From contig NZ_JALJRZ010000005.1 of NCBI RefSeq assembly GCF_024519435.1, positions 124,001 through 188,000 on the forward strand: a DNA stretch of 64,000 nucleotides, in the 5' to 3' direction. Both the position numbers and the translations under genes were made by a program. Source of the stretch: Terrabacter sp. Ter38 (GTDB lineage Bacteria; Actinomycetota; Actinomycetes; Actinomycetales; Dermatophilaceae). The notes under the pieces were generated by a model that worked only from the letters and a program-made list of their open reading frames with translations, searched no databases and was not told the origin of the DNA. Shown here one piece after another: positions 4,154 to 63,435 of this stretch. How positions within the stretch are numbered: the stretch's first letter is position 1; every line of letters starts with the position of its first letter.

Positions 4154-5770
4154 GTGACCACCGACCTCACCGCACCCGGCGCGCACCGCGCGACCGGCAC
4201 CGGCACGGCTCCCACGCCGGGCCCGGGCACCCGCCCGGGCCCGGCGTCCGGGCGTCGGCGACCGCACGCCCTCGCGGTCATCGCCGTACTCATCGCGCTC
4301 TTCTCGCTCGTGCCCCTCGGCTACGTCATCGCGATGACGGTCGCCACCGGATGGGACACCGCGGTCAGTCTCATCTTCCGAGCGCGCGTCGGTGAGCTGC
4401 TCCTCAACACCATCCTGCTCATGGCCGTCTCGGTGCCGCTGTGCCTCGTCCTCGGCGTCGGTGGCGCCTGGCTCGTCGAGCGGACCTCTCTGCGCGGCAA
4501 CAGGTTCTGGGCGCTCGCGCTGGCCGCGCCGCTCGCCATCCCGGCGTTCGTCAACAGCTACGGGTGGGTGTCGGCCGTGCCGTCCCTCGCCGGCCTCTGG
4601 TCGGGCGTCCTCATCTCGGTGCTGTCGTACTTCCCGCTCGTCTACATCCCGGCGGCGGCGACCCTGAGCCGCCTCGACCCGTCCCTCGAGGAGTCCGCGG
4701 CCTCGCTCGGTCTCGGCCCGTGGCAGGTCTTCCGCCGGGTCGTGCTGCCCCAGCTACGGCTCGCGATGACCGGCGGCGCGCTGCTCGTCGGACTGCACCT
4801 GCTCGCCGAGTACGGCGCTTTCGCGATGATCCGCTTCGACACCTTCACGACGGCGATCATGGTGCAGTACCAGTCGACCTTCAACGGCGCTGCCGGCAAC
4901 ATGCTCGCCAGCGTCCTCGTCGTCCTGTGCCTCCTGCTGCTCGTCGCCGAGGTCCGCAGCCGCGGCACCGCTCGCTACGCCCGCGTCGGCTCCGGTGGAC
5001 AGGCGGCCCCGGGGCGTATGCCGCTCGGTCGGCTCCACGTGCCGGCGCAGCTCGCGCTGCTGCTGCTCGTCGTCCTCGCCGTCGGCGTCCCGATGTGGTT
5101 CGTCGTCCGTTGGGTCGTGCTCGGCGGATCGGAGATCTGGGCTCCCGACGAGCTGGTCCCGGCCCTGCTCCAGACGCTCGTCTACGGCGTGGCCGGTGCG
5201 GTCGCGACGACGCTCGTCGCCTTCCCGATGGCCTTCCTCGCGGTGCGCCGACCGAGCTGGTTCACCCGCTCCCTCGAGCTGTCCAACTACATCACGAGCT
5301 CGATGCCAGGCATCGTCGTCGGCCTCGCCTTCGTCACCGTGTCCATCCGCTTCCTGCCGGCGTTCTACCAGACGGCCGTCGTCCTCGTCGCGGCCTACGT
5401 GCTGCTCTTCCTGCCGCGTGCCCTGGTCAGTCTCCGCTCCGGGCTCGCGCAGGCGCCGCGGGAGCTCGAGGAGGCCGCGCAAGCGCTCGGGGTGCGTCCC
5501 CTCGGCGCCTTCGTCCGGGTCACGCTGCGGCTCACGGCGCCGGCCGCCGCCGGGGGAGCGGCGCTGGTCTTCCTCGCCATCGTCAACGAGCTGACGGCGA
5601 CCCTCCTGCTCGCCCCCAACGGCACCACCACCCTCGCGACGGAGTTCTGGGCCAAGAGCAGCGAGATCGACTACGCCGGTGCCGCGCCCTACGCCCTACT
5701 CATGGTCGTGCTCTCGGCACCGATGACCTACCTGCTGTTCCAGCAGTCGAAGAAAGCGGCCGGACAATGA
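4154..5770 (+). CDS. Ferric iron ABC transporter, fused permease
   Basis: 538 residues from GTG 4154. Two homologous membrane modules, each about six helices, separated by a cytoplasmic linker near residues 260-290, as in FbpB/SfuB permeases. Each module carries an EAA loop that docks the ATPase: [20 protein letters not shown] in the first half and [20 protein letters not shown] in the second. The N-terminal 35 residues are Pro/Gly/Thr-rich and cytoplasmic. The stop overlaps the ATPase start (ATGA), indicating translational coupling. It forms the channel that passes Fe(III) from the binding lipoprotein to the cytoplasm. Confidence 0.92.
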
Positions 5771-6933
5771 CCACGACACCCCCGTCGACCTCCTCGCACC
5801 CGCCGGTCGACTACCACGACCCGTCGGCCCGGGGCCGTCTCGAGGTCAAGGGACTGACGAAGAGCTTCGGTCCGCAGCAGGTGCTGCGCGGCGTCACGCT
5901 GTCGGTCGACCCGGGGAGCACGACGGCCATCGTCGGTCCGTCGGGCTCAGGCAAGACGACCCTGCTGCGGCTCATCGCCGGCTTCGAGGGCGCCGACGCG
6001 GGCTCGGTCACCCTGAGCGGGCGCGCGCTCGCCGGTATCGATGCCTGGGTGCCCGCGCACCACCGCGACGTGGGCTACGTCGCCCAGGACGGCGCCCTCT
6101 TCCCCCACCTCACCGTCGGCCAGAACATCGCCTTCGGCATCGATGCCTCCGACCTGGCCGGCGGGCGCAAGGCCGTGCGGGCGCGTGTGGCCGAGCTGCT
6201 CGAGATGGTCTCGCTCGACGGCGCGCTCGCGGCGCGGCGACCGCACGAGATCTCGGGCGGGCAGCAGCAGCGGGTGGCGCTCGCGCGGGCCCTCGCCCGC
6301 GAACCCGAGCTCATGCTCCTCGACGAGTCCTTCTCTGCCCTCGACGCGGGTCTGCGGGTCGCGACGCGTCGCACCGTGGCCAAGGTGCTGCACGACGCCG
6401 GCATCACGACGGTCCTCGTGACGCACGACCAGGCCGAGGCACTGAGCTTCGCCGACCAGGTCGCCGTGATGCGCGACGGTCTGCTCGCGCAGGTCGACAG
6501 CCCGCTCGAGGTCTACACGAGACCCGTCGACCGGGCCACGGCCGAGTTCCTCGGCGACGCGGTGATGCTCGAGGCGTGGGTCGACGGCGACACGGCGACG
6601 TGCTCTCTCGGGTCCGTCCCGCTGGCGGCCACGACCCTCCGCGGACGAGTGCAGCTCATGCTCCGACCGGAGCAGATCCGCGTCGACGACGACGGCCCGA
6701 TCCGCGGGGTCGTCGTCGACACCGACTACTTCGGTCCCGAGAGCACGGTTCGTCTCGAGCTGACCTCGAGCCGCGAACCCGGTTGTGAGACATCGGCGCT
6801 CGCTCGGGAGGGTGAGATCATCAGCATCCGCCACTCCAACGCGTTCATCGCCGCCAGGGGCACCGAGCTCCGGTTGCGCATCGAGGGCGAGGCCATCGCC
6901 TTCCCGGCGACGGCAACCGGCGCCCCAGCCTGA
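5767..6933 (+). CDS. Ferric iron ABC transporter, ATP-binding protein
   Basis: 388 residues starting inside the permease stop (ATGA). Walker [16 protein letters not shown]-loop in [16 protein letters not shown], signature [15 protein letters not shown], Walker [14 protein letters not shown] (Ser where Pro is common after DE), and H-loop [11 protein letters not shown]. The last 110 residues form the TOBE-like regulatory domain usual for FbpC ([12 protein letters not shown] onwards). It energises import by the fused permease. Convergent with the HerA-like gene 34 nt away. Confidence 0.93.
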
Positions 6934-6967
6934 CGGGTGAGCGCCGCAGGGCGCCCGAGGTCGTCCT

Positions 6968-8401
6968 TCAGGGCATCGGCACCGGGACGTCGGTGCCGCC
7001 CTGCGGGGTGATGCGTCCACGGACCTGCACCACGCTCGGCATGGGGACGAACCCGCCGGCGAGCAGCGCCTCACCCTGACGGAAGCGGGCGGCCTGCGCG
7101 AGCAGCCCACGGGGCACGAACCCGAAGACGGAGGCGAGCTGGTCGAGGTCGTCCCGCGAGTTCATCCGCATCAGCGTCAGGTTGTCGCACTGGGACACGA
7201 TGCCGGGGTGCACCTTCGAGGGACGCTGCGTCGACAGGAGCAACCAGAGGCCGTACTTCCGGCCCTCGGCGGCGATCTGGATGAGCCGGTCGCGCACCGC
7301 GACTCCGAGGGGGGTCTCGGGCTCCGGTGGGCAGAGGTTGTGCGCCTCGTCGACGACGATGAGGAGGGGGCGGCGTTCGGTGCGCCGGGCCCACAGGTCG
7401 TCGAGGACGGCGAGCGCCACGGTGAGCTGCTCCTCGGGACGGTCGTAGCCACCGAGGTCGACGACCGTCGCGGCCGGTCGGCGCTCGATGACGTCCGTGA
7501 CGGCCGTGGCTCCGAATGCCCAGGTCCTCGTCCACTCGGTGAGGCCGAGGTTCTCGAGGCGCTGCGCCAGGGCTTCGGCGTCCGGGTCGCCGAGCGAGCG
7601 CAGGTACGGGACGATCTGACCCGCGTCCACGGTCTGGAAGTCTCCTCCGAAGAGGCGCAGCAGCGCGTTGTACTCGGCCCGGTCGACGACCGGGTCGAGA
7701 CGCAGGACCGCGGCCTTGGCCCGGGACGTGAGCTCGGTGAAGCGCACCCGCAGCGGGTTCTGCTCGTCGTCGGGCCGCAGGATGACGACCTCACGGTCAT
7801 GGAGTGCGTCGGCCTGCTCGTCCTCCGCGCCGGCCTGGACGGCCTGCTCGTGAAGGCGCACGAAGTCGCTGTTGGGGTCGAAGACGACCATGGGGAGGCG
7901 GGTCGTCAGGAGGATCCGCTCGAGGAGCACGCCGAGGGCGTACGTCTTGCCGGAGCCGCTCTGTCCGCACCAGAACGTGTGTCGGTTGAGGCGGTTGGGC
8001 ACGAGCGCGACGCCCACCGACTCCTGGCCCGCGAGGTGGCCGAGGTGCAGCCGGGGGTCGCCGCCCGACAGCAGCCGCTGCACGGTGTCGGGCCGGGTCG
8101 GCCGAACCGGGACCTCGTGCCGCGGCGAGTCCGCGGGTCGCCCCGAACCGGAGCCACTCCCGACCTGCACCAGCGTGCCGGTGGCGGCGAAGCCGACGCC
8201 CGACGCCTCGTCCGTGACCTCCTCGACGAACGCGAGGATGCCGTCCTCGTCGTCGAGCTCGAGGTAGTCACCCGGCAGCGGGCGCTCGCTCCCGGGGCCG
8301 CGGGCGACGAAGGACCGGCCGTCCGTGGACTCCAGATGGGTCAGCGCCGCAGGCACGGAGGTCGGAGCGGTGGGCGGGTCGACCTCGACGTTCGCAGTCA
8401 T
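6968..8401 (-). CDS. HerA-like ATPase (DUF87/FtsK-HerA superfamily)
   Basis: 477 residues from ATG 8401 (MTANVEVDPPTAPT). An N-terminal beta-barrel-like region (residues 40-85) is followed by a Gly/Ser linker and a HerA-type P-loop domain: Walker A GQSGSGKT at 146-153, Walker B LLIVVDEAH ending at D351-E352, then STQRPSKVHPGIVSQCDN, the sensor-like region typical of HerA/MlaA ATPases. Such enzymes form hexameric DNA pumps. Archaeal HerA works with NurA nuclease in end resection and bacterial relatives pair with nuclease, Sir2 or other effectors in defence, but no such partner is adjacent. Divergent from the membrane hydrolase gene. Role here unknown. Confidence 0.85.
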   Translation of the reverse strand: MTANVEVDPPTAPTSVPAALTHLESTDGRSFVARGPGSERPLPGDYLELDDEDGILAFVEEVTDEASGVGFAATGTLVQVGSGSGSGRPADSPRHEVPVRPTRPDTVQRLLSGGDPRLHLGHLAGQESVGVALVPNRLNRHTFWCGQSGSGKTYALGVLLERILLTTRLPMVVFDPNSDFVRLHEQAVQAGAEDEQADALHDREVVILRPDDEQNPLRVRFTELTSRAKAAVLRLDPVVDRAEYNALLRLFGGDFQTVDAGQIVPYLRSLGDPDAEALAQRLENLGLTEWTRTWAFGATAVTDVIERRPAATVVDLGGYDRPEEQLTVALAVLDDLWARRTERRPLLIVVDEAHNLCPPEPETPLGVAVRDRLIQIAAEGRKYGLWLLLSTQRPSKVHPGIVSQCDNLTLMRMNSRDDLDQLASVFGFVPRGLLAQAARFRQGEALLAGGFVPMPSVVQVRGRITPQGGTDVPVPMP

Positions 8402-8581: not shown

Positions 8582-10549
8582 ATGGAGCAGTCGGACGTCG
8601 TCCGCACCGGGCAGAAGGTCGGCCTCGTCATGGCCTCCTTCGTCACACCGTCGACGCTCGCGCCGTCGCTGTCGAAGCGCTCCTGGCAGGACCAGGGGAT
8701 CATCACCGGCTTGTCGACGGGCGCCCACTACCTCGTCGCGCTCTCCTCCCAGGACGTCATCGACGTCGTGGCGAGCGCGGCCGCCACGTGGGCGGTCTTC
8801 CCCGACAGCTGGTCCGTCGAACGCCGCCGGTCGGCGGCAACCCTCGGGTGCGAGCTGGTCATGGCGCCGCTGGGACTCGGTCTCGCGGCGTATCTCGACC
8901 GGCGCGGCGTCGCGACGGCGAAGGACGGCCTCCTGCGGCAGGGCGCCTGGCGGATGGGCGCCACGGGCCTGTGCGGATCGGTGCTCATCGGGGCGACGGC
9001 CGGGGTGCGTCGGCTCGACCGCGCCGTCGGTGCCGACGGGCGCATCGCGGCCCTCCCGCTGTCGATCCCCGTGGGTCTGGCCACGTCGGCCCTCATCGAG
9101 CGCGTCCAGCGCGAGTCCGGCTCGGAGGCCGGACTCGACACCGCGGACGACGTGCCCACCCTGCGGGGGCTCGCAGCCGGCGGCGGGGTCCTCGCGGTGC
9201 TCTACGGCGCAGGCTGGGTCGAGCGGTGGACCGCCGAGCAGGTGCGCCGGCTGGCCCCGGGGCAGACACCTGGCGCCGGGCTCGCCTGGCAGCTCGTCTC
9301 GCACGCCGCCTTCGTGGCCGGCGCCGGCATCGCCGTCAGCGCCCTCTGGACGCGCGTCATGCAGCGGATCGAGGCCGTGACGACGACGGTGGACCCGTGG
9401 ATGCAGGCGGCACCCGGCGTCTGGACCGACCCGATGACGAGCGGTGACCCGGCGAGCCTCGTGTCGTGGGAGTCCTTGGGGCGGGAGGGCCGCCGGCACG
9501 CTGTCACCTATGTGCGCCCCGCACCCGTCGCGCAACCGCTGGCGCTCCCGGACGGCAGGACCCCGCCGGACCTGTCGATCGCGACGGTGATGGGCGAGCC
9601 CGCCCGCGCGCACCCCGTCCAGGTCTTCGTCGGCCTCGACAGCGCCGCGACTCCGACCGAGCGCGTCGAGCTCGCGATCGCCGAGATGGATCGCACCGAC
9701 GCGTGGTCGCGCTCGCTGCTCATGCTCGTGTCGCCCACCGGGACGGGCTACGTCAACTACGTCGCGATCGCCGCAGCTCAGTACCTCACGCGCGGAGACG
9801 TCGCGAGCGTCACGATGCAGTACTCCAAGCGTCCCTCCCCGCTGTCGCTCGGCAAGGTCCGCGACGCGCGCGAGCAGAACCGGCTGCTGTGGCTGCGCAT
9901 CTTCGAGCGGGTGCGCGCCATGGCACCGGAGGAGCGGCCTGAGGTCGTGCTCTTCGGTGAGTCGCTCGGCGCGCACACGAGCCAGGACGTGTTGCTCGGC
10001 TGGGGGACCCTCGGACCGCAGGCCCTCGGGATCGACCGGGCCCTGTGGATCGGCACGCCCGGTGGCAGCCAGTGGATGCACGAGGTCACAGGGGCACCAC
10101 GCCCCGATGTCGATGCGAGCCTCGTCGCCGTCGTCAACGACCACGAGCAGTTCCTCGCCCTCGGCCAGGAGGCGAGGGAACGGCTGCGCTACGTGCTGCT
10201 CAGCCACGACAACGACGGTGTCACGAAGTTCGGCCCCGACCTGCTCAACCGCAGACCCGCCTGGCTGGGGCCCGACCGGCCGCGCCGCGAGGACGTGCCG
10301 TTGCGGTCGCCACGCGGCATACCGGCAGGGATGCGGTGGCGTCCGGTCACGACGTTCTTCCAGACGCTCATCGACATGAAGAACGCCCAGCTGCCCGGCG
10401 AGTTCAGGGCCTGGGCCCACGACTACCGCGCCGACCTGCCCGAGTTCATTCGCGACGTCTACGGCCTCGAGTGCACGGACGAGCAGATGCATGCCATCCA
10501 GGCGGCGGTCCGGGTACGCGAGGAGTTCCGCGAGGAGGTCTTCGCCTGA
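8582..10549 (+). CDS. Membrane-associated alpha/beta-hydrolase (Abhydrolase_9 type)
   Basis: 655 residues from ATG 8582, with GGAGG 5 nt upstream. The N-terminal half is membrane-embedded, with several hydrophobic segments in residues 10-270 and the signature FVTPSTLAPSLSKRSWQDQG. The C-terminal half is an alpha/beta-hydrolase domain with the nucleophile elbow VLFGESLGAHTSQD (G-E-S-L-G) and IGTPGGSQWMHEV. This two-part arrangement matches PF15420/PF10081, abundant in actinobacteria and of unknown substrate; lipid or cell-envelope ester hydrolysis is plausible. An Ile codon ATA appears inside the repeated word GGCATAC at 10316-10322. Confidence 0.88.
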   Translation: MEQSDVVRTGQKVGLVMASFVTPSTLAPSLSKRSWQDQGIITGLSTGAHYLVALSSQDVIDVVASAAATWAVFPDSWSVERRRSAATLGCELVMAPLGLGLAAYLDRRGVATAKDGLLRQGAWRMGATGLCGSVLIGATAGVRRLDRAVGADGRIAALPLSIPVGLATSALIERVQRESGSEAGLDTADDVPTLRGLAAGGGVLAVLYGAGWVERWTAEQVRRLAPGQTPGAGLAWQLVSHAAFVAGAGIAVSALWTRVMQRIEAVTTTVDPWMQAAPGVWTDPMTSGDPASLVSWESLGREGRRHAVTYVRPAPVAQPLALPDGRTPPDLSIATVMGEPARAHPVQVFVGLDSAATPTERVELAIAEMDRTDAWSRSLLMLVSPTGTGYVNYVAIAAAQYLTRGDVASVTMQYSKRPSPLSLGKVRDAREQNRLLWLRIFERVRAMAPEERPEVVLFGESLGAHTSQDVLLGWGTLGPQALGIDRALWIGTPGGSQWMHEVTGAPRPDVDASLVAVVNDHEQFLALGQEARERLRYVLLSHDNDGVTKFGPDLLNRRPAWLGPDRPRREDVPLRSPRGIPAGMRWRPVTTFFQTLIDMKNAQLPGEFRAWAHDYRADLPEFIRDVYGLECTDEQMHAIQAAVRVREEFREEVFA

Positions 10550-11622: not shown

Positions 11623-11753
11623 GGTCGCCTCCTCGTCGGTGCTCCACGCGGGGGCCGTATGCCGTCGGCTGCCGGGGCGCGGCGGCGTCCCGTCGACGGG
11701 CGCGGCGTGGTGCGCGTCACCCTAGCGGAGCGGGCCGATCGGCTTGTCATCGA

Positions 11754-14043: not shown

Positions 14044-14051
14044 CGTCGCCG

Positions 14052-14093
14052 ACCTCGTATGCCGCGTGTCGGAGGGGACACGGCATACGAGGT
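14052..14093. terminator. Bidirectional terminator containing inverted GTATGCC words
   Basis: ACCTCGTATGCCG (14052-14064) pairs perfectly with CGGCATACGAGGT (14081-14093); an inner TGTC/GACA pairing extends the stem past a small bulge. It separates the convergent MMPL and DUF202 genes. Both stem arms contain the dispersed word GTATGCC/GGCATAC described elsewhere. Confidence 0.7.
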
Positions 14094-14095
14094 CG

Positions 14096-14437
14096 TCAGC
14101 GGCTGGCGAGGACGACGACGAGGGTGAGGGCGGCGACCGCGAGGACACCGGCGATCGCGGCCGTCCTCGCGATCGGGGCCGCGGCCACCGTACGGCTGTC
14201 CGGGTCGTCGCGCATGCGCACGAGCCGGCTGCCGTCGCGGTAGCGACGTCGTGCCGTCAGCGCGAGGTCGACGCTCCACAGCAGGCCGAGGAGGGCGACG
14301 GCATACCCGAGGGGTCCGACCTGCGGGGGGAGCACCCGTATCGCGAGGAGCGAGCCGACGGCCACCGAGAGCGCCGTGCGGCGCCAGGCGAGGGACGTGC
14401 GCTCGGCCTGCAGCCCGGGGTCGGCTGGGGAGGTCAC
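14096..14437 (-). CDS. DUF202 membrane protein, second of a pair
   Basis: 113 residues from GTG 14437, which overlaps the stop of the upstream gene (GTGA). DUF202 signature near the N-terminus: GLQAERTSLAWRRTALSVAV (E-R-T-x-L-A-W-x-R-T), followed by three hydrophobic helices. Small inner-membrane protein related to yeast Vtc1-like and YidH-like proteins; function unknown. Forms a translationally coupled pair with the DUF202 gene directly upstream, suggesting a heteromer. Confidence 0.85.
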   Translation of the reverse strand: MTSPADPGLQAERTSLAWRRTALSVAVGSLLAIRVLPPQVGPLGYAVALLGLLWSVDLALTARRRYRDGSRLVRMRDDPDSRTVAAAPIARTAAIAGVLAVAALTLVVVLASR

Positions 14438-14946: not shown

Positions 14947-15786
14947 ATGACCCAGGTTCCGACCCGCACCCTCAGCGACGGCACGACCCTCCCCGCCACC
15001 GGCTTCGGCACGTACCCGCTCACGGGCGAGGACGGCATACGTGCCATCGTGTCGGCGCTCGAGGCCGGCTATCGGCTGCTCGACACGGCCGTCAACTACG
15101 GCAACGAGGCGGAGGTGGGCGAGGCGATCCGCCGGTCCGGCGTGCCCCGCGACGAGATCGTCGTCCAGACGAAGGTGCCGGGGCGCGACCACGCGTACGA
15201 CCGTGCCATCGCCTCCGTCGAGGGGTCGCTCGAGCGCCTCGGCCTCGAGCAGGTGGACGTCGCCGTCATCCACTGGCCCAACCCGAGCGTCGGGCTCTAC
15301 GGCGACGCGTACCGCGCTCTCCTCGAGTGCCGCGAGCGCGGCCTCGTGCGGTCCGTCGGTGTCAGCAACTTCACCGAGCAGCATCTCGCCGACGTCATCG
15401 AGGCGACGGGTGTCACGCCGGTGCTCAACCAGGTCGAGCTGCACCCGCTCTTCCCGCAGGAGCGTCTGCGAGCGGTCCACGAGCGGCTCGGGATCGTCAC
15501 CGAGGCGTGGAGCCCGCTCGGCAAGCGGAACGCCCCCTTCGGCGCCGACCCGGTGGCTGCTGCCGCGGAGGCGCACGGCGTCACCCCGGCCCAGGCGATC
15601 CTGCGCTGGCACGTGCAGCTCGGCGTCGTGCCGCTGCCGAAGTCGTCGGACGCCCAGCGGCAGCGCGCCAACCTCGACGTCTTCGGCTTCGAGCTGTCCC
15701 ACGCCGAGGTCACCGCCATCTCGGCGCTGGCGCGCGCGGACGGGCGCCTCTTCGGGGGCGACCCGGACACGCATGAGGAGATGTGA
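14947..15786 (+). CDS. Aldo/keto reductase
   Basis: 279 residues, NADPH-dependent carbonyl reductase of the AKR5-like group (2,5-diketo-gluconate reductase type). Catalytic tetrad visible: D46 in LLDTAVNYGNE, Y51, K76 in VVQTKV and H109 in VAVIHWP. NADPH site LPKSSDAQRQRANLD toward the C-terminus in place of the canonical IPKS. Cytoplasmic; in vivo substrate unknown. A rare ATA Ile codon at residue 31 falls in a GGCATAC word (15034-15040). Confidence 0.92.
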   Translation: MTQVPTRTLSDGTTLPATGFGTYPLTGEDGIRAIVSALEAGYRLLDTAVNYGNEAEVGEAIRRSGVPRDEIVVQTKVPGRDHAYDRAIASVEGSLERLGLEQVDVAVIHWPNPSVGLYGDAYRALLECRERGLVRSVGVSNFTEQHLADVIEATGVTPVLNQVELHPLFPQERLRAVHERLGIVTEAWSPLGKRNAPFGADPVAAAAEAHGVTPAQAILRWHVQLGVVPLPKSSDAQRQRANLDVFGFELSHAEVTAISALARADGRLFGGDPDTHEEM

Positions 15787-16425: not shown

Positions 16426-19400
16426 GTGCACTCGGGGACTGCGCGCACGACCGACGGCCACGTCGACGGGCGGGCCTCCTCCACCCTCCCGCGCTCGCCC
16501 AAGCACCGACCGCCCGCCCTCACGGTCCGCACCGTACGACGGGCCACGATCCCCGCGCCCCTCCCGCTGGACTCGGCGACGGAGCGTGCCAGCGGCACGG
16601 TCGTGCTCGTCGCCGGCTCGGTCGGCACGGGCAAGACGACGTTGCTCGCGGACTGGTCGGGCGCGCTGGAGCAGCGCGGCGACCTTGTCGGCTGGGCCTC
16701 GCTCGACCGTGAGGACAACGACCCCCGGGTCATGGGCGAGACGCTGCTCGGCGCCCTCACGGCGGCCGTGGGAGCCCAGGTCCCCGCCGTCGACGCGGAG
16801 ACGGTCCCGAACCGCGTCGGGCACGCGTTCGTGACCCGGCTCGTCCAGCTCGCGGGTGAGGCTCCTGCGGACACGTGGCTCGTCCTCGACGACCTGCACC
16901 TCGTCCGCGACCCGCGGTGCGTGGAGCTCGTCGAGCTGATCGTCCGATGGGCCCCGGCGCACCTGCACGTCGTCGTCGGCACGCGTGCCGACCCGGGACT
17001 GCACCTGGCCCGGCTGCGCCTCGAGGAGCGGCTCGTCGAGGTGCGCGAGCACCAGCTGCGCTTCACCATCGACGACACCCGTGAGCTGTTGTCCCGGCAC
17101 GACGTCGGCCTCGACGAGGGCCAGGTGCGCCACCTTCAGGAGCTCACGGAGGGGTGGGCGGCCGGGGTCGCCCTGGCGGCTGTCTCGTTGGCGCGCGGTC
17201 GCGAGGCCGATGCCTTCCTCCGCGAGTTCGCGCGGAGCCACCGCGCGATGTCGGGCTACCTCGTCGAGGAGGTGCTGGCGAGCCTCGACGAGGAGGTGCG
17301 TGACTTCCTCGTCTCGACCTCGGTCCTCGAGGACCTCACGCCCGACCTCGCCGCCGCCGTGACCGGGCGCGACGACGCGGGGGCGCTGCTCGAGGCGCTC
17401 TCGTCGGACAACGCCATGGTCAGCGTCGACCGGCTCGGGTCGCCGACCTATCGCTACCACGTGCTGCTGCGCAGCTACCTCGGCGCGATGCTCGAGTCCC
17501 GTAGCCTCCGAGGTGCCCGGGAGGTCCATGCCCGGGCCGCCCGGTGGTATGCCGCCCACGACGTCCCGGGACAGGCGCTGCGTCACGCCGAGGCGGCCGG
17601 GGATCTCGACCTCATGAGCGACGTGATCCATCACCACGCGCTCCACCTGCTCCTCGACGGCCGGGCCGCCGACGTCGAGGCCGCCGTGCGCACGGTCCCG
17701 ATCGGGGACCCCGTCATGACCGCGGTCGCAGCACTCGCGAGCCTCGACCTGTCGGACCCGGACGCCGCGCGGACCCAGCTCGTGTCACTCGCGACGCAGC
17801 CCGACACGTGGCTCGCCGGCGAGGTGGACGGTGCTCCGGCGGATGTCGAGCCGGCGCCCGACGGCCCGGGCCCCGCCGACCCGGGAGCGTTACCCCTCGA
17901 GCGCCTGCTGGCGGTCGGCCTCCGCTGGCTCTCCTTCGTGGGTGACGACGTGGGTCGACGGTCGGCTGCGGAGCCGGCTGCGGGTCCGGCTGCGGGCCCG
18001 GCTGCGGGCCCGGCTGCGGGTCCGGCTGCGGGTCCGGCTGCGCGCCTCGGCGCCCAGCCCAGCGGCGACGAGCGCGTCGCGGACGGCCTGACCGCCGAGC
18101 TGTCCTCCACCTTCCGGGCGTGGTCGGGCAGCCGGTCCGCACGCAGCCACGTCGTGCCGACCCTCGACGACTCCGTCCCGAGCACCATGGCGGGAGAAGG
18201 GCTTTCGGAGCGGAGTCGGCTGATGGGCCGCGCGCCGCACGAGCACGCCCAGACCGACCTCGACCTCCTCGACGAGCTGACGAGCGGGGGCGTCCTCTTC
18301 GGCGCCGGCCGTCTCGACGACGCCCGGACGGCCTACGGCGCGGCCCTCGGCACCGCTCGCCGTGCCGGGCACCTGCTGTCCGCCCTTCAGGCCATGGTCG
18401 GGCTCGCGTCGGTCGCGGCCGGCCGGGAGGACCTCGTCGAGATGACGGCATGGTCCGAGCGTGTGCTCGCCGAGGCGCAGGGCACGCCGTGGGCCCGGTC
18501 GCCCCGGCTCCTGCCCGCCCATGTCTTCGCGGCGTGGGGCGCCCATCAGGTCCTCGACATCGCGACCGCGCGGGACCGCAACCGGACCGCCCTCGCGCTG
18601 ATCGCCGAGGTCTCGTCGATGATGCCCGCGCTCGTGTCCGGGAACGGGGAGCCCGGCGACGCAGCCTCCTCGACAGCGGCGCGCGGCCTCGAGCAGCTGG
18701 GTCGGCTCGCGCGGATGCTCGACGCCGACCTCGACCTCGAAGAGGATGCGGACGAGCCCGGTGCCCGGCAGGACGTGGTCGCCCGCGTCATGGCGGGAGC
18801 CAGGGACGTGTCGCGACTGTCGATGACCCCGGACCTCGCCGTGGGCGAGCTGTCCCGGGCGCACCGGATCGTGCTGCTCGCAGGGTTCCCGCGACTCGCT
18901 GTCGAGGTCGAGCAGCTGAGTGACGGGCTGCCCGGGTGCGAGGTCGAGATCGCCGTCATGGCGGGGGTGCGCCACCTGTGGGACGGTGACGACGCCGCTG
19001 CCCGCTCGGCGGTCGCGCCCCTGCTCGCGGTCGACCCTGCGATGCTTCCCCTGCGCGCGGCCGTCACGGCGCACCTCGTCAAGGCGGTGGTGGCCCATCG
19101 CAACGCCCAGCCCACCGTCGCGCACGAGGGACTCGTCGTCGCCCTGACCCGAGCCGCTCCCCAGCGCGCGCTCCGGACGGTGCTCGAGGTCGCGCCTGAG
19201 GTCGCCGAGGTCCTCGCCGTCGGTGCAGGACGGCTCGGCGAGCTCGAGCCGTTCGCCCTCGAACTGCGCGAGCACTCCCGTCCGGCTGCGGACCTGCGCC
19301 CGGATCCGCTGCTCGAGGTCGCCCTCAGTGCCCGCGAGCTCAGCCTGCTGCGTGAGCTGCCGTCGCTCCTGACCGTCGCCGAGATCGCCGACGCGCGAGC

Positions 19401-19831: not shown

Positions 19832-20962
19832 GTGACCCAGGAGCCCGCGGGGGACTCTGCGGTCGGCCCCCCTGAGCCAGGGCGGTCCGAGCAGCCGCAG
19901 GAGCCGCCGTCGCGAGGTGAGGGGCGGCGACGGTCGACGCGACGACGGACGCTGCTCGTCGGTGCCCTGCGGATCGGTCTGACACTCGTGGCGCTGTGGT
20001 GGTTCTCCCGCGTCGTGCGACGGGTCAACTGGTCGGCCGTGTGGGACGCCGTGGCCGGCCTGACCCCGGCCCAGGTCGTGGCCCTGCTGGGCGCCGTCGC
20101 GCTGCGCCAGTGCCTCAATGCCGGCCCACTCGCAGTCTTCGTGCCGTCCCTCGGACTGCGCCGGGCCGTGTCGAACGACCTGTCGGCGAACCTCGTCGCG
20201 ACAGTCGCGCCCCCGCCGGGCGACGTCGTGCTGCGCATCGCGATGCTCCGGTCGTGGGGGATCCCGTCCGCCGAGGGCATCGCCGGCATCTCGCTCAACA
20301 CCCTGACCTACTACGTCGCCCGTTTCGGCGCACCGGTCCTGGGGCTGGGACTGGCCGCGGTCGCTGGACAGGTCGAGCCGGCATACGTCTGGACCGCTGT
20401 CTCGAGCGGGGCGGTCAGCCTCGTCGTCGTCGTGGGGCTCGTCATCGCGTCCCGCGGTGAGCGACCCGCCGCGCGTGCCGCCGGATGGGTCGGCCACCAG
20501 CTGCGACGTGTCACCCCGCGGGTCGACCCCGCGGCGTGGTCGACCCGCGCCACCGAGTTCGTCCGACAGGCGGGCGACGTCCTGCGCCGCGGTTGGGGCC
20601 GGGCCATGGCCTGCCAGGTGGGACTGGTCCTCAGCGAGGCGCTGTTGCTCGTGCTGTCGCTGCGCTTCGCCGGCGTGCCGGCGCTCGTGGCTCCCACCGT
20701 CACCGTCGTCGTGGCCCTGCTCATCAGCTACCCCCTCACAGCACTGCCCTTCGGCGGCCTCGGGGTGCTCGACGGCGCCGTCATCGCCATCCTCGGCCTG
20801 GAGCAGGGACCGTTCGAGACGAAGGCCATCGCGGGGCTCGTCGTCTTCCGCGTGTGCTGGATGCTCGTCCCGCTCGCGCTCGGAGCCGCGGCGGTCACCC
20901 GATGGCGGCGCGCCCACGTCGCCGAGGCAGCGGCCGTCAGAAGCGCCACACGAGGGGAATGA
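19832..20962 (+). CDS. Flippase-like integral membrane protein (LPG_synthase_TM/UPF0104 type)
   Basis: 376 residues from GTG 19832 with AGGA upstream. A 45-residue charged cytoplasmic tail precedes about eight hydrophobic helices. Features of the lysylphosphatidylglycerol synthase TM family (PF03706): LGLRRAVSNDLSANLVATVA with APPPGDVVLRIAMLRSWGI, and LPFGGLGVLDGAVIAILGL near the C-terminus. These proteins are thought to move lipids or lipid-linked molecules across the membrane. It lacks the synthase domain. Its 3' end overlaps the convergent transporter gene by 26 nt. Confidence 0.85.
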   Translation: MTQEPAGDSAVGPPEPGRSEQPQEPPSRGEGRRRSTRRRTLLVGALRIGLTLVALWWFSRVVRRVNWSAVWDAVAGLTPAQVVALLGAVALRQCLNAGPLAVFVPSLGLRRAVSNDLSANLVATVAPPPGDVVLRIAMLRSWGIPSAEGIAGISLNTLTYYVARFGAPVLGLGLAAVAGQVEPAYVWTAVSSGAVSLVVVVGLVIASRGERPAARAAGWVGHQLRRVTPRVDPAAWSTRATEFVRQAGDVLRRGWGRAMACQVGLVLSEALLLVLSLRFAGVPALVAPTVTVVVALLISYPLTALPFGGLGVLDGAVIAILGLEQGPFETKAIAGLVVFRVCWMLVPLALGAAAVTRWRRAHVAEAAAVRSATRGE

Positions 20963-22742
20963 CGGTGACGGCCACGACGAGCCACAGGAGCAGGACCGGA
21001 AGCCCGAGGCGCCAGTAGTCGCCGAAGCGGTAGCCGCCCGGGCCCATGATCATCATGTTGGCCGGCGTCGCGATCGGGGTGAGCAGCGACGCGGCCCCGG
21101 CGACCGCGACGAGCATGAGGACCGGCAGCACCGAGACCCCGGTCTCCTGGGCCGCGGCGACCGCGATCGGCACGATGATGAGCACCGTGGCGGTGTTGCT
21201 GACGACCTGCCCGACGACCGCGGTCAGGGCGAAGAGCGCGATGAGGAGCGCGTAGGGGCGACCCGCGCCCACGACGTCGATGAGGCCCCGTGCCACGAGG
21301 TCGGCCGCGCCGCTCGTCTCGATCGCGGTCGACAGCGGGATGAGGCCACCGATGAGCACGACGGTCTGCCACGAGACGGCGCGGTAGGCCTGGTTGACGC
21401 TGATGACCCGGGTCAGCACCATCGCGGTCGCGGCAGCGAGGCCTGCGATCGCCGGCGGCACGACTCCGAGCGCGAGCAGGGCGACCATGACGAGGAGGAC
21501 GACGATCGCCCGGCCCGACCGTGGACCGAGCGGAACTGCTTGTCGCCGAACGAGATCCGGGGAGTCGACGAGCAGCACGTCACGGTCGTGCACGAGCTCC
21601 TCGATGGCCGTCCACGTGCCGTGCAGCAGGAGGCTGTCACCGGCGTTCAGCTCGAGCGGCGCAGCCCCCACGTCCTTGCCGAGACGACGGATCCCGAGCA
21701 CGACGAGGTCGCTCGCTCGCATCTGTCCGGGGAAGGCCGTCTCGCCGACCAGCGGCGAACGCGGGGGCACGACGACCTCGGCCACGCCGACCTCGCGGTT
21801 CATGATCCCGGCCGACTCGACCGTGATCGGCCGCATCGCGACCGCGAGACGCAGCTCGGGCACGAGCCGGCTCACTGCCTCGCTCGCCCCGCTCACGACG
21901 ACGACGTCGTCGTCACCCACGGGGGTCGGGCCCGTGACGACGTGGCCACCGGTGCTCTGCACGCCGATGAGCGTCACCCCCGGGTATGCCGCGAGGTCGA
22001 GACGGTCTGCCGGTACCCCGACGACGGGCGACCCGGGACGCACCCGGAGGCGGTAGAAGCCGTCGTGCAGCTCGTAGTACGCCGGGAGCCGGTTGGCGTG
22101 ACGGCCGAGGTCTCGCACGGGCTGCGACGAGGTCCGGCGGGGGAGCACCCGGGGTCCGAGCAGGACGCCGAGCGTCACGGTGCCGATGACGAGAGGCAGC
22201 CCGACGACGGCGAAGTCGAAGAAGCCGAACGGCTCCGAGCCGGCGTCGACGGCTGCGTTGGAGACGATGACGTTGACCGGGCTGCCGGTCAGGGCGAGGA
22301 GGGACCCGGCGCTCCCGGCGAAGGCCATCGGCATGAGCATGACCGACGGGGACCGCCGGATCCGGGTGGCGAGGACGAGCACCATGGGCAGCAGGGCGGC
22401 GACCGAGCCGTTGAGGGTGATGACGGCGGTGAGCACGGCACACAGCCCGAGCACCGCGACCATGAGCCGCACCGCCCCGTTGCCGACGACGTCGATGAGC
22501 CGCTGGCCGGCCCACGTCGTCACGCCGGCTGAGTCGATGGCCTCGCTGACCACGAAGAGGGAAGCGATGAAGACGACGACAGGGTCGCCGAACCCCGACA
22601 GGGCCGTGTTCGCGTCGACGAGTCCCGTCGCGTACAGCGCGAGGCAGGTGAGGACGGCCACCCCGCCCACGGGCAGCCGGTTCCAGATGAAGAGGACGAC
22701 GGTCGCGGCGAGGACCACCAGGCTCGTCGTCGCGGGGCTCAT
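20937..22742 (-). CDS. SLC13/DASS-type anion transporter with TrkA_C domains
   Basis: 601 residues from ATG 22742. N-terminal helices with GVAVLTCLALYATGLVDANT and LNGSVAALLPMVLVLATR; the substrate-site signature TGSPVNVIVSNAA and its repeat VSNTATVLIIVPIAVAA in the second half match the divalent-anion:Na+ symporter (DASS/CitMHS) fold. Two RCK/TrkA_C-like cytoplasmic domains lie between (from YRLRVRPGSPVVGVPAD to GDSLLLHGTWTAIEELV). Such proteins carry sulfate, di- or tricarboxylates. Substrate not deducible. The 3' end overlaps the convergent gene. Confidence 0.88.
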   Translation of the reverse strand: MSPATTSLVVLAATVVLFIWNRLPVGGVAVLTCLALYATGLVDANTALSGFGDPVVVFIASLFVVSEAIDSAGVTTWAGQRLIDVVGNGAVRLMVAVLGLCAVLTAVITLNGSVAALLPMVLVLATRIRRSPSVMLMPMAFAGSAGSLLALTGSPVNVIVSNAAVDAGSEPFGFFDFAVVGLPLVIGTVTLGVLLGPRVLPRRTSSQPVRDLGRHANRLPAYYELHDGFYRLRVRPGSPVVGVPADRLDLAAYPGVTLIGVQSTGGHVVTGPTPVGDDDVVVVSGASEAVSRLVPELRLAVAMRPITVESAGIMNREVGVAEVVVPPRSPLVGETAFPGQMRASDLVVLGIRRLGKDVGAAPLELNAGDSLLLHGTWTAIEELVHDRDVLLVDSPDLVRRQAVPLGPRSGRAIVVLLVMVALLALGVVPPAIAGLAAATAMVLTRVISVNQAYRAVSWQTVVLIGGLIPLSTAIETSGAADLVARGLIDVVGAGRPYALLIALFALTAVVGQVVSNTATVLIIVPIAVAAAQETGVSVLPVLMLVAVAGAASLLTPIATPANMMIMGPGGYRFGDYWRLGLPVLLLWLVVAVTVIPLVWRF

Positions 22743-31544: not shown

Positions 31545-31920
31545 GCGAGAACTCCTACTGGTACCCCGCCGGCGGCCTTTGCTCGACCGCGATCTGGCGC
31601 CCGTCAAGCCTAGGGGACTGGTCCGACGGATGGTGCCGAGCGGGTGGGGTGTCCGGTTCGTCCGGGAGGGCGCGGCGCGCGGCGAGCGGCGAGCGCACGC
31701 GGCGAGCGCACGCGGCGAGCGACTGACCCGGCGCTCGCTGGGTACTCGTCACCCGGCGGCATCGTCGCTCTTCAACCAGCCAGGGGCGGCGGTGACGTCG
31801 CAGGACGGACCGGATCCGGACACACAGCGAGACGGCACCCGCTCGGGGGATCGGGTGCCGCCTCACCCACACCATCGCGGCCCGCGTTCATCCGTTACAG
31901 CCTCCGGATCGCGTATGCCG
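31545..31920. other. Intergenic region between ANTAR and response-regulator genes
   Basis: 376 nt without a gene. It contains a 13-nt direct repeat (GAGCGCACGCGGC at 31691-31703 and 31704-31716), a terminator hairpin at 31833-31860 and a GTATGCCGTC word at 31913-31922 that touches the stop of the response regulator. The ANTAR promoter should lie here but is not obvious. Confidence 0.5.
31833..31860 (-). terminator. Terminator of the two-component operon
   Basis: Perfect 9-bp stem CGGCACCCG (31833-31841) with CGGGTGCCG (31852-31860), 10-nt loop, about 60 nt beyond the response-regulator stop. Confidence 0.6.
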
Positions 31921-35109
<3,189 letters not shown>

Positions 35110-40660: not shown

Positions 40661-40848
40661 ACCGGTATGCCTCTCGGGTGCACACCGCCCGACGCACCGA
40701 AGGAGGGGGCGCCGGCGCGGGTTCAGGGGGCCGCTGGGCTGGAGCCTCCACGCAGGTCCATACCCGGGTAGCGGCCCGGTCACACCGATCCGGTGGATCG
40801 TGTGCGGTATGAGGTGGTTTCGCCCGCCCGGCCGGCGCGCGCATGCCG

Positions 40849-44881: not shown

Positions 44882-45784
44882 GTGTCCGAGATCGCCGACC
44901 GTGCCCAGGGCATGGTGCGCCACGACGACAAGGGCGGCTTCCCCGCCCAGCAGCAGGACCCGCCCGGACTGACGAGCCAGATGCATCCGGAGCCGGACCA
45001 CGGCGAGCAGACCTACGTCGGTCACGGCCGGCTCGAGGGGAGACGGGCACTCATCACCGGTGGGGACTCCGGCATCGGGCGGGCCATCGCGATCGCGTAC
45101 GCCCGTGAAGGTGCCGACGTCGCGATCAGCTACCTGCCTGCCGAGCAGTCCGACGCAGAGGACACCCTGCGCTGGATCGAGAAGGCCGGTCGCACCGGCG
45201 TGCTCGTGCCGGGCGACCTCGTCGAGCGTCAGGCCTGCATGCAGGCGGTCGCCGACGCGGTCCGTGGCCTGGGGGGCCTCGACATCCTCGTCAACAACGC
45301 CGGCTACCACTGGGACCGCGGTCCCGAGGGGCTGGAGGGGCTCCAGCCGGAGCACGTCGAGCGGGTCCTGCGCACCAACCTCTACGCGGTGATCTGGCTC
45401 TGCCAGGCGGCACTGCCGCATCTTCGACCTGGCTCGTCGATCATCAACACGACGTCCATCCAGGCCTACGACCCGTCGCCCGCGCTGCTCGACTACGCGG
45501 CTACCAAGGCTGCACTCAACAACCTCACCGTCAACCTCGCGGCGTCACTCGGGCCCAAGGGGATTCGCGTGAATGCCGTGGCCCCGGGACCGATCTGGAC
45601 GCCGTTGCAGCCGGCGACGCGAGACAGCCGGAAGATCGAGACGTTCGGAGCGGACACGCCGCTGGGACGGGCCGGCCAGCCCGGAGAGGTCGCACCGGCA
45701 TACGTCTTTCTGGCGTCCCCGGCGGAGGCCAGCTACGTGTCGGGCACCGTGCTCGGGGTGACGGGTGGCGGAGCGGTCTTCTGA
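44882..45784 (+). CDS. Short-chain dehydrogenase/reductase (YghA-like)
   Basis: 300 residues from GTG 44882 with GGAAGGA upstream. A 50-residue N-terminal extension (QQQDPPGLTSQMHPEPDHGE) typical of the YghA/general-stress SDR subgroup precedes the Rossmann fold: TGGDSGIG at 59-66, NNAG at 138-141, and the catalytic S192-Y205-K209. NAD(P)-dependent oxidoreductase of unknown substrate; this subgroup is commonly part of SigB-type general stress regulons, consistent with the nearby sigma gene. Confidence 0.92.
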   Translation: MSEIADRAQGMVRHDDKGGFPAQQQDPPGLTSQMHPEPDHGEQTYVGHGRLEGRRALITGGDSGIGRAIAIAYAREGADVAISYLPAEQSDAEDTLRWIEKAGRTGVLVPGDLVERQACMQAVADAVRGLGGLDILVNNAGYHWDRGPEGLEGLQPEHVERVLRTNLYAVIWLCQAALPHLRPGSSIINTTSIQAYDPSPALLDYAATKAALNNLTVNLAASLGPKGIRVNAVAPGPIWTPLQPATRDSRKIETFGADTPLGRAGQPGEVAPAYVFLASPAEASYVSGTVLGVTGGGAVF

Positions 45785-52300: not shown

Positions 52301-53251
52301 TCAGGAGGCCCCGTGCCAGGCGGCGACCGCTGTTGGAGTGGCGAGCTCGCCCACGACGGCGGTCGAGAGCAGGGTGTGGCCGCTCGCGTTCGGGTGGTCA
52401 CCGTCGTCGAGGAGGTCACCCGTCGGATCCCGGGTGCCCGAGGTGCCCTTGAGCGGGCTGTACGCGTCCACGTAGACCGCGCCCGTCGTCGCGGCCACCT
52501 GGTGGACCGTGTCGTTGACCAGGCGGGTGAGCTCGTCGCTGCCGAGGACGAAGTCCTCGCCGAGAGCCCGGCCGACCGAGCCGTCGACCGTGACGTTCCA
52601 GTAGCCGAGCAGGGCGATCCGCAGGTCGGGACGGTGGTCGACGCGGTGGATCGCCGCGATGATCCGGGTCAGGCCGTCGCGCAGGCCGGCGATCGTGGCG
52701 GACCAGCAGTCCGACCCGGCGGCCGGGAAGCAGCCCTGGTCGTCGACCCGGTCGAGGTCGAAGTCGTTGGCTCCCACCTCGACGAGGACGAGGTCGGCGT
52801 TCGCGAGGTGGCCACGGGTGGAGGAGGAGCCGAGGTCGTCCTCGACGTCCGACGTGGTCCAGCCGCCGTTCGCGTCGTTGTGCACCACCCAGCTCCGGTG
52901 CGTCAGCGCCCCGAGCCGCTGACCGACCTGCTCGACGTAGCCCGTGCAGCCGCACGTCTCGGCCGACGGCACGGAGTCCCCGAGACCCACGAGCGTCAGC
53001 GGTCCGGACGGCGTCGTCCCGGAGGCCGACGGCGTAGCCGGGCCCACTGTGGTGGCCGACGTCCTCGGTGCCGCGCCGGGATCACCCAGGAGGGTCGACG
53101 GTCCGAGGCCGGGCACGACACCGCTCAGGCCGAGGGCGGCGAGGACGGCCAGGCCGAGCAGCGCCGCGACGAGGTGGCGAGGTCGCGCGCGCACCCCACG
53201 CCCCCGGTGCCGGCGGCGGCCCGGGCGTCCGTCAGCGTCCCCCGACGGCAT
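52301..53251 (-). CDS. Secreted or membrane-anchored SGNH/GDSL hydrolase
   Basis: 316 residues. The chosen ATG (53251) lies inside the repeated word GTATGCCGTC. A basic N-terminus and one hydrophobic helix (LVAALLGLAVLAALGLSGVV) anchor or export the protein, followed by a Ser/Thr/Pro linker. Catalytic blocks: LTLVGLGDSVPSAETCGC (block I Ser), VLVEVGANDFDLDRV (block III G-x-N-D), and DDGDHPNASGHTLLS (block V D-x-x-H). Four Cys residues could form two disulfides. Third gene of the lysX operon; probably acts on cell-envelope esters. Confidence 0.88.
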   Translation of the reverse strand: MPSGDADGRPGRRRHRGRGVRARPRHLVAALLGLAVLAALGLSGVVPGLGPSTLLGDPGAAPRTSATTVGPATPSASGTTPSGPLTLVGLGDSVPSAETCGCTGYVEQVGQRLGALTHRSWVVHNDANGGWTTSDVEDDLGSSSTRGHLANADLVLVEVGANDFDLDRVDDQGCFPAAGSDCWSATIAGLRDGLTRIIAAIHRVDHRPDLRIALLGYWNVTVDGSVGRALGEDFVLGSDELTRLVNDTVHQVAATTGAVYVDAYSPLKGTSGTRDPTGDLLDDGDHPNASGHTLLSTAVVGELATPTAVAAWHGAS

Positions 53252-53264
53252 ACGTCCTCTGGGC

Positions 53265-61217: not shown

Positions 61218-62075
61218 GTGTGTCGTCTCTTCGGGATGAGTGCCGGTCGCGCGCGGGTGTCCGCGACGTTCTGGCTCCTCGACGCCCCGGACAGCCTGAG
61301 TCACCAGTCGCACCGCAACCCGGACGGCACGGGCCTCGGCACCTTCGACGAGGCGGGCCGACCGGTCGTGGAGAAGCAGGCCCTGGCGGCCTGGGACGAC
61401 GCGGACTTCGCGAGCGAGGCGAAGGAACGGCGCAGCGCGACCTTCGTGGCGCACGTCCGCCACTCGTCCGGCACCGGGGCCCGCCCGGAGAACACCCACC
61501 CCTTCGAGCTCGACGGCCGGCTCTTCGCGCACAACGGTGTGGTCCGGGGGCTGTCCCTTCTCGAGGAGCACCTCGGCGCCGCCATGTCGTCGGTTCGCGG
61601 CGACACCGACTCCGAGCGACTCTTCGCGCTCGTGACCACCGAGACCGCCGCTGCGGGTGGAGACGTGGCTGTGGGGATGGAGCGTGCCCTCGGCTGGGTG
61701 GCCCGGAACCTGCCCGTGTATGCCGTCAACGTCGTCCTGACGACGCCCACCGAGCTGTGGGCGTGCCGCTACCCCGACACGCACGCCCTGTGGCTGCTCG
61801 ACCGCCGACAGCCCGTCGAGGTCCTCGACCACCGGAGTGCCGCGGGCACGCACGTCGTCAGCGACGACCTGGCCGACGCACCGTGCGTCGTCGTCGCGAG
61901 CGAGCGCCTCGACGACGACCCCGCGTGGCGGCTGCTCGACCCCGGCGTCCTCGTCCGGGTCGGCCCCGACCTGTCGGTGACCGAGCGGGCCGTCGTCGAC
62001 CCGGAGCCGCGGCACCGCCTGCGGCCGGCCGACCTCGGCGCCGCCGCGGCCTCCCAGCGACCGACCGGGAGGTGA
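61218..62075 (+). CDS. Stand-alone class II glutamine amidotransferase (YafJ-like)
   Basis: 285 residues from GTG 61218, only 2 nt after the ThDP-enzyme stop. After Met removal the N-terminal nucleophile is Cys2 (VCRLFGMS). Class II signatures: FVAHVRHSSGTGARPENTHP with R81, FAHNGVV with N106-G107, and GDTDSERLFALV with D129-T-D131. A YafJ-type domain without a synthase partner fused; it would release ammonia from glutamine. Its placement after a glutamate-synthase domain gene lacking this module is notable. Confidence 0.9.
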   Translation: MCRLFGMSAGRARVSATFWLLDAPDSLSHQSHRNPDGTGLGTFDEAGRPVVEKQALAAWDDADFASEAKERRSATFVAHVRHSSGTGARPENTHPFELDGRLFAHNGVVRGLSLLEEHLGAAMSSVRGDTDSERLFALVTTETAAAGGDVAVGMERALGWVARNLPVYAVNVVLTTPTELWACRYPDTHALWLLDRRQPVEVLDHRSAAGTHVVSDDLADAPCVVVASERLDDDPAWRLLDPGVLVRVGPDLSVTERAVVDPEPRHRLRPADLGAAAASQRPTGR

Positions 62076-62078
62076 GGC

Positions 62079-62672: not shown

Positions 62673-62740
62673 GGTCGTGATCCTAGGTCGGACGGCGGCC
62701 GGTGCAGGGCGACCGCGATGACCTGTCCAGCTCGGGAATA

Positions 62741-62762: not shown

Positions 62763-62769
62763 GAACCCC

Positions 62770-63324: not shown

Positions 63325-63367
63325 GCACCTGCCCCGCACCCGACCCCGGCTCGCGACGAGCCGACGA

Positions 63368-63403
63368 GCCGCTGGGCCCGGACCGATGTCCGGGCCCAGC
63401 GGC
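63368..63403. terminator. Bidirectional terminator
   Basis: Perfect 16-bp stem (63368-63383 with 63388-63403) with the tetraloop CGAT between the convergent FMN-reductase and MarR/OhrR genes. The 3' arm runs into a GGCATAC word (63401-63407). Confidence 0.85.
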
Positions 63404-63435
63404 ATACCAGGGTCGTCGTGCTCGGCCGGGCGCGC

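What the first reader, a model, noticed from the sequence alone, without database searches (positions are those of the whole stretch)
5016..63407. A 7-10-nt word, GTATGCCG(TC), is heavily over-represented and overrides codon preference
I count 23 copies of GTATGCC on both strands, 21 of them GTATGCCG and 10 the full GTATGCCGTC. With roughly 72% G+C and random base order I would expect about 6 of the 7-mer and about 0.1 of the 10-mer in 64 kb (both strands). In coding sequence the word occurs in every frame and each time uses otherwise unusual codons: TAT before GCC (17547, 14300, 30165, 33681, 35705, 39617, 42124, 61718), GCA TAC (20380, 21984, 33618, 45696), GGC ATA with rare Ile ATA (10316, 15034), CGT ATG CC (5016, 28343, 53247). 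Six copies are intergenic. Different substitutions converge on the same word, so simple deamination of one methylated site does not explain it. Candidates are a DNA-uptake word, a methylation/restriction site, or a segregation signal; equal numbers on both strands argue against an oriented KOPS-like element.
Basis: partly seen in the sequence, partly recalled or inferred. Interest (0 to 1): 0.78.

Follow-up and report, generated by a model that had tools for sequence, protein, structure and literature searches.

The report
Genome-wide direction-spaced DNA word, soil actinobacteria
A seven-letter DNA word, GTATGCC, is written some two thousand times into the chromosome of a soil bacterium and of many of its relatives, kept apart from copies facing the same way and scarce in two inserted viruses, which suggests a mark by which the cell recognises its own DNA.

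Summary
The window (genus Terrabacter, family Intrasporangiaceae/Dermatophilaceae) holds 23 GTATGCC against 1.7 expected; the genome holds 640 GTATGCCGTC against 22 of the reversed word. Protein sequence and codon usage explain 24 of 161 coding copies in 464 kb. The word is enriched in many genera of this family and not in 18 other families of the order. The 7-mer core has genus-specific flanks, shows no strand polarity, forms hairpins at some gene ends in Terrabacter, and is sparse in two prophages of a relative. A new feature: copies in the same orientation avoid each other within about 1 kb while opposite copies do not; samples of Neisseria uptake sequences and E. coli Chi do not show this. 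I favour a self-DNA recognition word for natural transformation, read with polarity (about 0.45). A Chi-like signal or an unknown directional reader remain open. No receptor was found, and the gene families tested do not separate genomes with and without the word.

The parts
5016..5022 (+). GTATGCC copy, in a gene
10316..10322 (-). GTATGCC copy, in a gene
11657..11666 (+). GTATGCCGTC, intergenic
14045..14100 (.). hairpin between two convergent genes made by an inverted pair of the word (14057-14063 + and 14082-14088 -); probable two-way terminator (inferred)
   Evidence: -35.6 kcal/mol, z -6.1; 13 bp and 7 bp from the two called gene ends
14057..14063 (+). GTATGCC copy, left arm of the hairpin
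14082..14088 (-). GTATGCC copy, right arm of the hairpin
14297..14306 (-). GTATGCCGTC, in a short called gene
15031..15040 (-). GTATGCCGTC, in an aldo/keto reductase gene
17547..17553 (+). GTATGCC copy, in a MalT-like regulator gene
20380..20386 (-). GTATGCC copy, in a gene
21984..21990 (+). GTATGCC copy, in a DASS-type symporter gene
28343..28352 (+). GTATGCCGTC, in a carboxylesterase gene
30162..30171 (-). GTATGCCGTC, in a LytR-CpsA-Psr gene
31913..31922 (+). GTATGCCGTC, at the end of a called gene (7-mer core intergenic)
33618..33627 (+). GTATGCCGTC, in a GAF/histidine kinase gene
33678..33687 (-). GTATGCCGTC, same gene, opposite orientation
35705..35711 (-). GTATGCC copy, in a gene
39617..39623 (-). 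GTATGCC copy, in a gene
40665..40671 (+). GTATGCC copy, intergenic
42124..42130 (-). GTATGCC copy, in a Na/H exchanger gene
45697..45703 (-). GTATGCC copy, in a gene
53244..53253 (-). GTATGCCGTC, intergenic
61718..61727 (+). GTATGCCGTC, in a gene
63401..63407 (-). GTATGCC copy, intergenic

Best explanation
GTATGCC (in this genus GTATGCCG[T/C]C) is a genome-wide self-recognition word of chromosomes of this family. The most likely use is natural transformation through ComEA/ComEC and Tad/Flp pili: a surface or channel protein binds the word on incoming DNA and starts uptake from it in one direction. Conspecific DNA is thus favoured, and the word spreads and is kept by uptake plus homologous recombination. 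Because uptake from a word runs one way and brings in one strand, a second word facing the same way within about 1 kb adds little, while one facing the other way does. Shown: the excess, its DNA-level origin, the family limits, dialects, hairpins (in Terrabacter), same-orientation exclusion, scarcity in two prophages, and presence of comEC and pilus-type ATPases. Inferred: that a reader exists, that it acts in uptake, and that it is polar.
For: About 2,200 copies of the 7-mer in this genome, beyond codon and protein constraints in 464 kb. No strand polarity. Constant 7-base core with genus-specific flanks, comparable to the DUS dialects of PMC3630211 (passages). Close inverted pairs form strong hairpins at gene ends in this genome; Neisseria DUS pairs are likewise opposite in 17 of 18 pairs within 60 bp. 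Six copies in 80.5 kb of two prophages against 16 in 39.5 kb of flanks. comEC in 145 of 149 and a PF00437 ATPase (Tad/PilB type) in 148 of 149 family genomes; comEA+comEC+tad is the transformation set of Micrococcus luteus (PMC4322843, passages). Prophages sit inside comEC in two genomes that carry the word; prophages that disrupt competence genes are described for pneumococcus (PMC12637031, passages), so transformation probably matters in these hosts. Same-orientation exclusion indicates a directional reader.
Against: Genomes without the word have comEC as well, so this gene does not track it. DUS in a Neisseria MAG show no same-orientation exclusion (45 seen, 35.6 expected). No receptor was identified. 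Intergenic enrichment and the excess of close hairpin pairs are present in Terrabacter but absent in the complete g48 genome. Conservation between Terrabacter species is only moderately above comparable 7-mers, and 0 of 5 in one of them. Nothing here tests transformation in these strains.
Confidence: 0.45

Rival explanations
1. Chi-like signal: the word tells a helicase-nuclease working on broken ends (AdnAB in actinobacteria) to stop degrading and start recombination; both orientations are needed for the two ends of a break.
For: Short asymmetric core, chromosome marking, orientation matters, redundancy of near copies facing the same way would be expected; an AdnAB-type gene pair (name inferred from PF12705 and gene order) in the 20 loci examined, one of them incomplete.
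Against: Chi is polarised and consecutive Chi sites tend to share a strand (PMC8022716 passages; E. coli sample: 109 of 131 on the major strand of their segment, neighbours 91 same and 37 opposite); here there is no polarity and neighbours alternate. E. coli Chi shows no same-orientation exclusion (19 seen, 19.2 expected; small sample). RecC was not found in the window's genome. The AdnAB-type pair is full-length in 9 of 10 word-less genomes, and no residues track the word beyond the mirror comparison.
Confidence: 0.17
2. Binding site of an unknown DNA-organising, replication or repair protein (or an asymmetric methylation mark needed on each strand separately) that acts in one direction or on one strand.
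For: Strand-autonomous spacing fits any process in which each strand needs its own spaced marks. The gene families tested (comEC, PF00437 ATPase, recC, PDDEXK_1 nuclease) do not track the word.
Against: Hairpin pairs, dialects and scarcity in acquired DNA have a ready precedent in uptake words; over-representation from a methylation site alone is not expected.
Confidence: 0.33
3. By-product: codon or codon-pair bias, mutation bias, terminator repeats, or sequencing adapter.
For: Most coding copies (101 of 161) are in the Tyr-Ala frame; the 10-mer lies within the Illumina P7 oligo (recalled).
Against: 161 against 24 in codon shuffles; five of six strand/frame classes enriched here and six of six in G127; 0 of 218 sites with the P7 16-mer; limited to one family.
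Confidence: 0.02

Closest known systems
DNA uptake sequences (DUS, Neisseriaceae) and uptake signal sequences (USS, Pasteurellaceae)
   Same: Hundreds to thousands of copies, both strands, asymmetric word, constant core with dialects, close inverted pairs at gene ends (in Terrabacter), few in the two prophages seen, comEC present.
   Different: High-GC Gram-positive family; presumably a different pilus type (Tad/Flp); same-orientation exclusion within about 1 kb that the Neisseria DUS sample lacked; no receptor known. The Terrabacter dialect shares ATGCCGTC with Neisseria ATGCCGTCTGAA, but other genera extend the core differently, so I take this as coincidence.
Chi sites (RecBCD/AddAB)
   Same: Short asymmetric over-represented chromosomal word; orientation matters.
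   Different: No strand polarity; consecutive copies alternate; same-orientation exclusion not seen in the E. coli Chi sample.
HIP1 of cyanobacteria (recalled, no call)
   Same: Extreme over-representation within one lineage.
   Different: HIP1 is palindromic; this word is not.

Membership tests
DUS/USS | short word far above composition and codon expectation, spread over the genome | tested here: met
DUS/USS | both orientations, no strand polarity | tested here: met
   (G127, 338 sites in 20 stretches); origin position assumed, GC skew did not confirm it, but the stretches together show no polarity
DUS/USS | inverted pairs forming hairpins at gene ends | tested here: inconclusive
   own genome: 10 of 13 nearest-neighbour pairs within 60 bp are GTATGCC..GGCATAC, 6 of the 10 intergenic, 5 of those 6 at gene 3' ends; no excess in G127
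DUS/USS | lineage dialects around a constant core | tested here: met
DUS/USS | scarce in acquired DNA | tested here: met
   two prophages of one genus
DUS/USS | competence machinery present | tested here: met
   (ComEA seen in 15 of 21 loci); but also in word-less genomes
DUS/USS | no orientation-dependent spacing (as seen in the Neisseria sample) | tested here: not met
   not a textbook defining trait, so I do not treat it as exclusion
DUS/USS | word raises uptake; cognate receptor such as ComP | not testable with these tools
   needs experiments
Chi | polarised along replication; consecutive sites on one strand | tested here: not met
   E. coli control
Chi | a Chi-reading nuclease present | tested here: inconclusive
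   AdnAB-type pair in the own genome, not known to me to read Chi; RecC not found in the own genome
Chi | changes nuclease activity | not testable with these tools
   needs biochemistry
KOPS/FtsK-type polar signal | orientation skewed towards the terminus | tested here: not met

The most novel reading that the evidence does not exclude
A new class of genomic word: a directional, strand-autonomous self-mark in which each DNA strand carries its own spaced series of copies, with a same-strand exclusion zone of about 1 kb and no regard to the other strand, unlike uptake sequences, Chi or KOPS.
Probability: 0.35. Interest if true: 0.9.

Novelty: new variant of a known kind. Interest (0 to 1): 0.8.

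Why it matters
Uptake guided by a genomic word is known to me (recalled) mainly from two proteobacterial families; a Gram-positive case with a different pilus would show that it evolved again. The spacing rule gives a sequence-only handle on whether a genomic word is read with polarity, and the family offers natural contrasts of genomes with and without the word.

Tried and rejected
Codon/codon-pair bias, Tyr-Ala bias and Markov composition: rejected. Illumina adapter: rejected. KOPS: rejected. RecBCD-Chi: RecC in 59 of 149 family genomes and not found in the own genome; with the 10-mer rule, word+ 25 with / 57 without, word- 33 with / 31 without, unclear 1 / 2. Reading RecC rows against the 7-mer counts (my arithmetic), in g1, g6, g32 and g36 the single RecC+ genome had the lowest density, but not in g23 or g51; and in g48 RecC is in 30 of 31 genomes, the word-less G437 included. 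Taken as weak. AdnAB residues tracking the word: none beyond the mirror comparison. comEC, PF00437 and PF12705 as discriminating genes: no. The word-less g48 genome G437 shows only part of comEC, but its contig ends there (8504 bases), so nothing follows. Arthrobacter hits: local pairs without wider enrichment in the 8-kb loci. One-mismatch neighbours of the word: the Markov expectation is itself coloured by the word, so I draw nothing from it. A plasmid search with a window gene gave one weak hit and no information. Conservation in relatives: above comparable 7-mers in 5 of 6 genomes, but significant alone in only one. Two regular-expression passes for ComEA were wrong by my own patterns (4 and 0 of 21 loci); 6 of 21 loci still gave none and were not followed up.
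Full report
What is there. The window contains 23 GTATGCC on both strands against 1.71 expected from dinucleotide shuffles, and 10 GTATGCCGTC against 0.06. The window is bases 124001-188000 of contig 50 of a 4.83-Mb genome, which holds 328 + and 312 - copies of the 10-mer, against 13 and 9 of the same word read backwards, and 2185 GTATGCC against 349 of the reversed 7-mer. In 464 kb of this genome the two most over-represented 7-mers against a 3rd-order Markov model are the overlapping TATGCCG and GTATGCC (z 52.5 and 43.9), and the extended consensus is GTATGCC, then G (0.93), T or C (0.45/0.41), C (0.63).

Whose genome. So the window lies in Terrabacter or its immediate kin, family Intrasporangiaceae in NCBI, Dermatophilaceae in GTDB (recalled). 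The window genes that I searched (20 of 57 called) look like ordinary chromosomal ones: LysX, and TreS-like, pyruvate dehydrogenase-like, transporter, aminopeptidase and other genes (several below the curated cut-offs).

Not codons, not adapters. Shuffling synonymous codons within each gene, which fixes the protein and codon usage, gives 24.2 coding copies against 161 seen, and 6.0 against 85 for GTATGCCGYC. Enrichment holds in five of six strand/frame classes here and in all six in G127, a complete genome of another genus. The 10-mer lies in the Illumina P7 oligo (recalled), but 0 of 218 sites carry the 16-base P7 stretch.

Who has it. Of 149 family genomes, 82 are clearly enriched for the Terrabacter 10-mer, 64 are not and 3 are unclear by a simple rule (at least 25 copies and 2.5 times the control); 30 of 53 genera have an enriched genome and 21 have only unenriched ones. 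This rule misses other dialects: the two g16 genomes fail it but have 1209 and 1292 7-mers against controls of 640 and 714. In 272 genomes of 18 other families of the order, 7-mer counts lie near the control; by eye the largest excesses were about 3-fold (G161 9 against 3, G350 178 against 62). Flanks differ by genus: GTATGCCGTG in G017, GGGGTATGCC in G047, CCGTATGCCG in G099, while 80 kb of the word-less G045 shows no such top word.

Where copies sit. In Terrabacter copies are 2.8 times denser between genes than within them (57 in 52.4 kb against 161 in 411.6 kb); in G127 there is no difference (0.826 and 0.831 per kb). Of 13 nearest-neighbour pairs with a gap of at most 60 bp in the own genome, 10 are GTATGCC..GGCATAC. 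Six of those 10 are intergenic, and five of the six lie at gene 3' ends, four of them between convergent genes, including window 14057-14088. These five folded at -35.6 to -51.1 kcal/mol with z from -5.1 to -9.2. G127 has no such excess. Copies are spread evenly: gap coefficient of variation 0.89, longest gap 10.6 kb in 464 kb.

The spacing rule. In 20 stretches of G127 the strands are balanced: 75/75 in the ten from the first part of the contig and 98/90 in the ten from the second. I assumed the origin near the contig start; the GC skew (0.001 and 0.009) did not confirm it, but no long-range polarity is visible in these stretches. Neighbours alternate in orientation: own 131 opposite, 84 same (permutation P 0.0008); G127 217 and 102 (0 of 5000 shuffles); G099 29 and 12 (0.0012); G039 26 and 12 (0.010); G017 28 and 22 (0.23); G047 26 and 18 (0.18). 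For all pairs 60-1000 bp apart, same-orientation pairs are depleted: 20 against 48.5 expected (own), 86 against 134.6 (G127), 20 against 45.3 (G017, G039, G047 and G099 pooled; G047 is of the same genus as G127), while opposite pairs are at or somewhat above expectation: 59/49.1, 170/144.8, 44/45.0. Beyond about 2 kb both are near expectation. Eight hand-picked control words show no such pattern: in the own genome seven gave pairs, and same-orientation pairs are in the majority in five, slightly in the minority in two (6/7 and 8/11); in G127 six gave pairs and none has a minority of same-orientation pairs. E. coli Chi in 600 kb (131 sites) shows 19 against 19.2, with strong polarity; this control is small. 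So the rule is not a general property of uptake words or Chi, as far as these samples go.

Foreign DNA. In two g48 genomes, G080 and G451, an insert of about 40 kb with portal, terminase and head genes splits comEC next to a serine integrase. The two inserts hold 2 and 4 copies of the word in 80.5 kb together, against 16 in 39.5 kb of flanking chromosome. In two further genomes, G117 and G049, which lack the word, a truncated comEC also borders a serine integrase.

Maintenance. In syntenic DNA of six same-genus genomes the window's copies are conserved 21/23 (G136), 18/23 (G094), 15/23 (G122), 11/19 (G113), 7/12 (G142) and 0/5 (G130), against 0.67, 0.67, 0.53, 0.41, 0.41 and 0.36 for 7-mers with three A/T. 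Five of six exceed the comparison but only the first is significant alone, and G130, which has RecC, goes the other way on five sites. Copies thus turn over, with at most moderate retention.

Which reader. comEC is present in 145 of 149 family genomes, a PF00437 ATPase in 148, and PF12705 nucleases in all 149; none separates genomes with and without the word. An AdnAB-type gene pair is found in 10 word+ and 10 word- loci, the second gene incomplete in G062, with no residues tracking the word beyond the mirror comparison. RecC was not found in the window's genome. ComEA was recognised in 15 of 21 comEC loci. The ComEA-ComEC-Tad set is the transformation apparatus of Micrococcus luteus (PMC4322843, passages); the terms for sequence-specific uptake that I searched there had no occurrence.

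Judgement. Strand balance, dialects, hairpins, scarcity in prophages and the competence genes point to an uptake-like self-recognition word; the exclusion rule says that its reader is directional or strand-specific. I therefore propose polar, word-started DNA uptake, at 0.45, with a Chi-like signal and an unknown directional reader as the main rivals. Literature: the listings (10 to 25 rows each, 3) showed no paper on this word or on uptake words in this family; the library holds open-licence papers only. Papers seen: PMC2346458, first of three parts; PMC8022716, PMC12637031, PMC4322843, PMC3630211 and PMC6370729, passages.

Noticed in passing
L278-L280 (G080) and L281-L283 (G451): About 40-kb prophages with a serine integrase inserted at nearly the same place in comEC in two genomes of genus g48; in G117 (L284) and G049 (L285) a truncated comEC also lies beside a serine integrase, so comEC looks like a recurrent phage target in this family.
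   Followed up: partly
L275, L288, L289 (G434, G090, G089): comEC domain matches are split or partial in these genomes, possibly frameshifts or insertions.
   Followed up: no
L005 (G000 C1:86112-96454): A 10.3-kb stretch without the word and with low G+C (0.67) contains a PF00437 (TadA-type) ATPase match; possibly an acquired tad locus.
   Followed up: no
L090, L092, L103, L109 (Arthrobacter); L105, L116 (Lentzea): Near-perfect inverted pairs of the word occur as single local hairpins, alike between related species, outside the family.
   Followed up: partly
L185:18705-18771 and 6197-6444 (G127 C1:3500001-3520000): Repeated units of about 30 bp that contain the word, in two intergenic stretches.
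   Followed up: no
G130, G085, G031, G125: In four genera the single genome with RecC has the lowest word density (G085 and G031 are incomplete assemblies); two other genera do not show it.
   Followed up: partly
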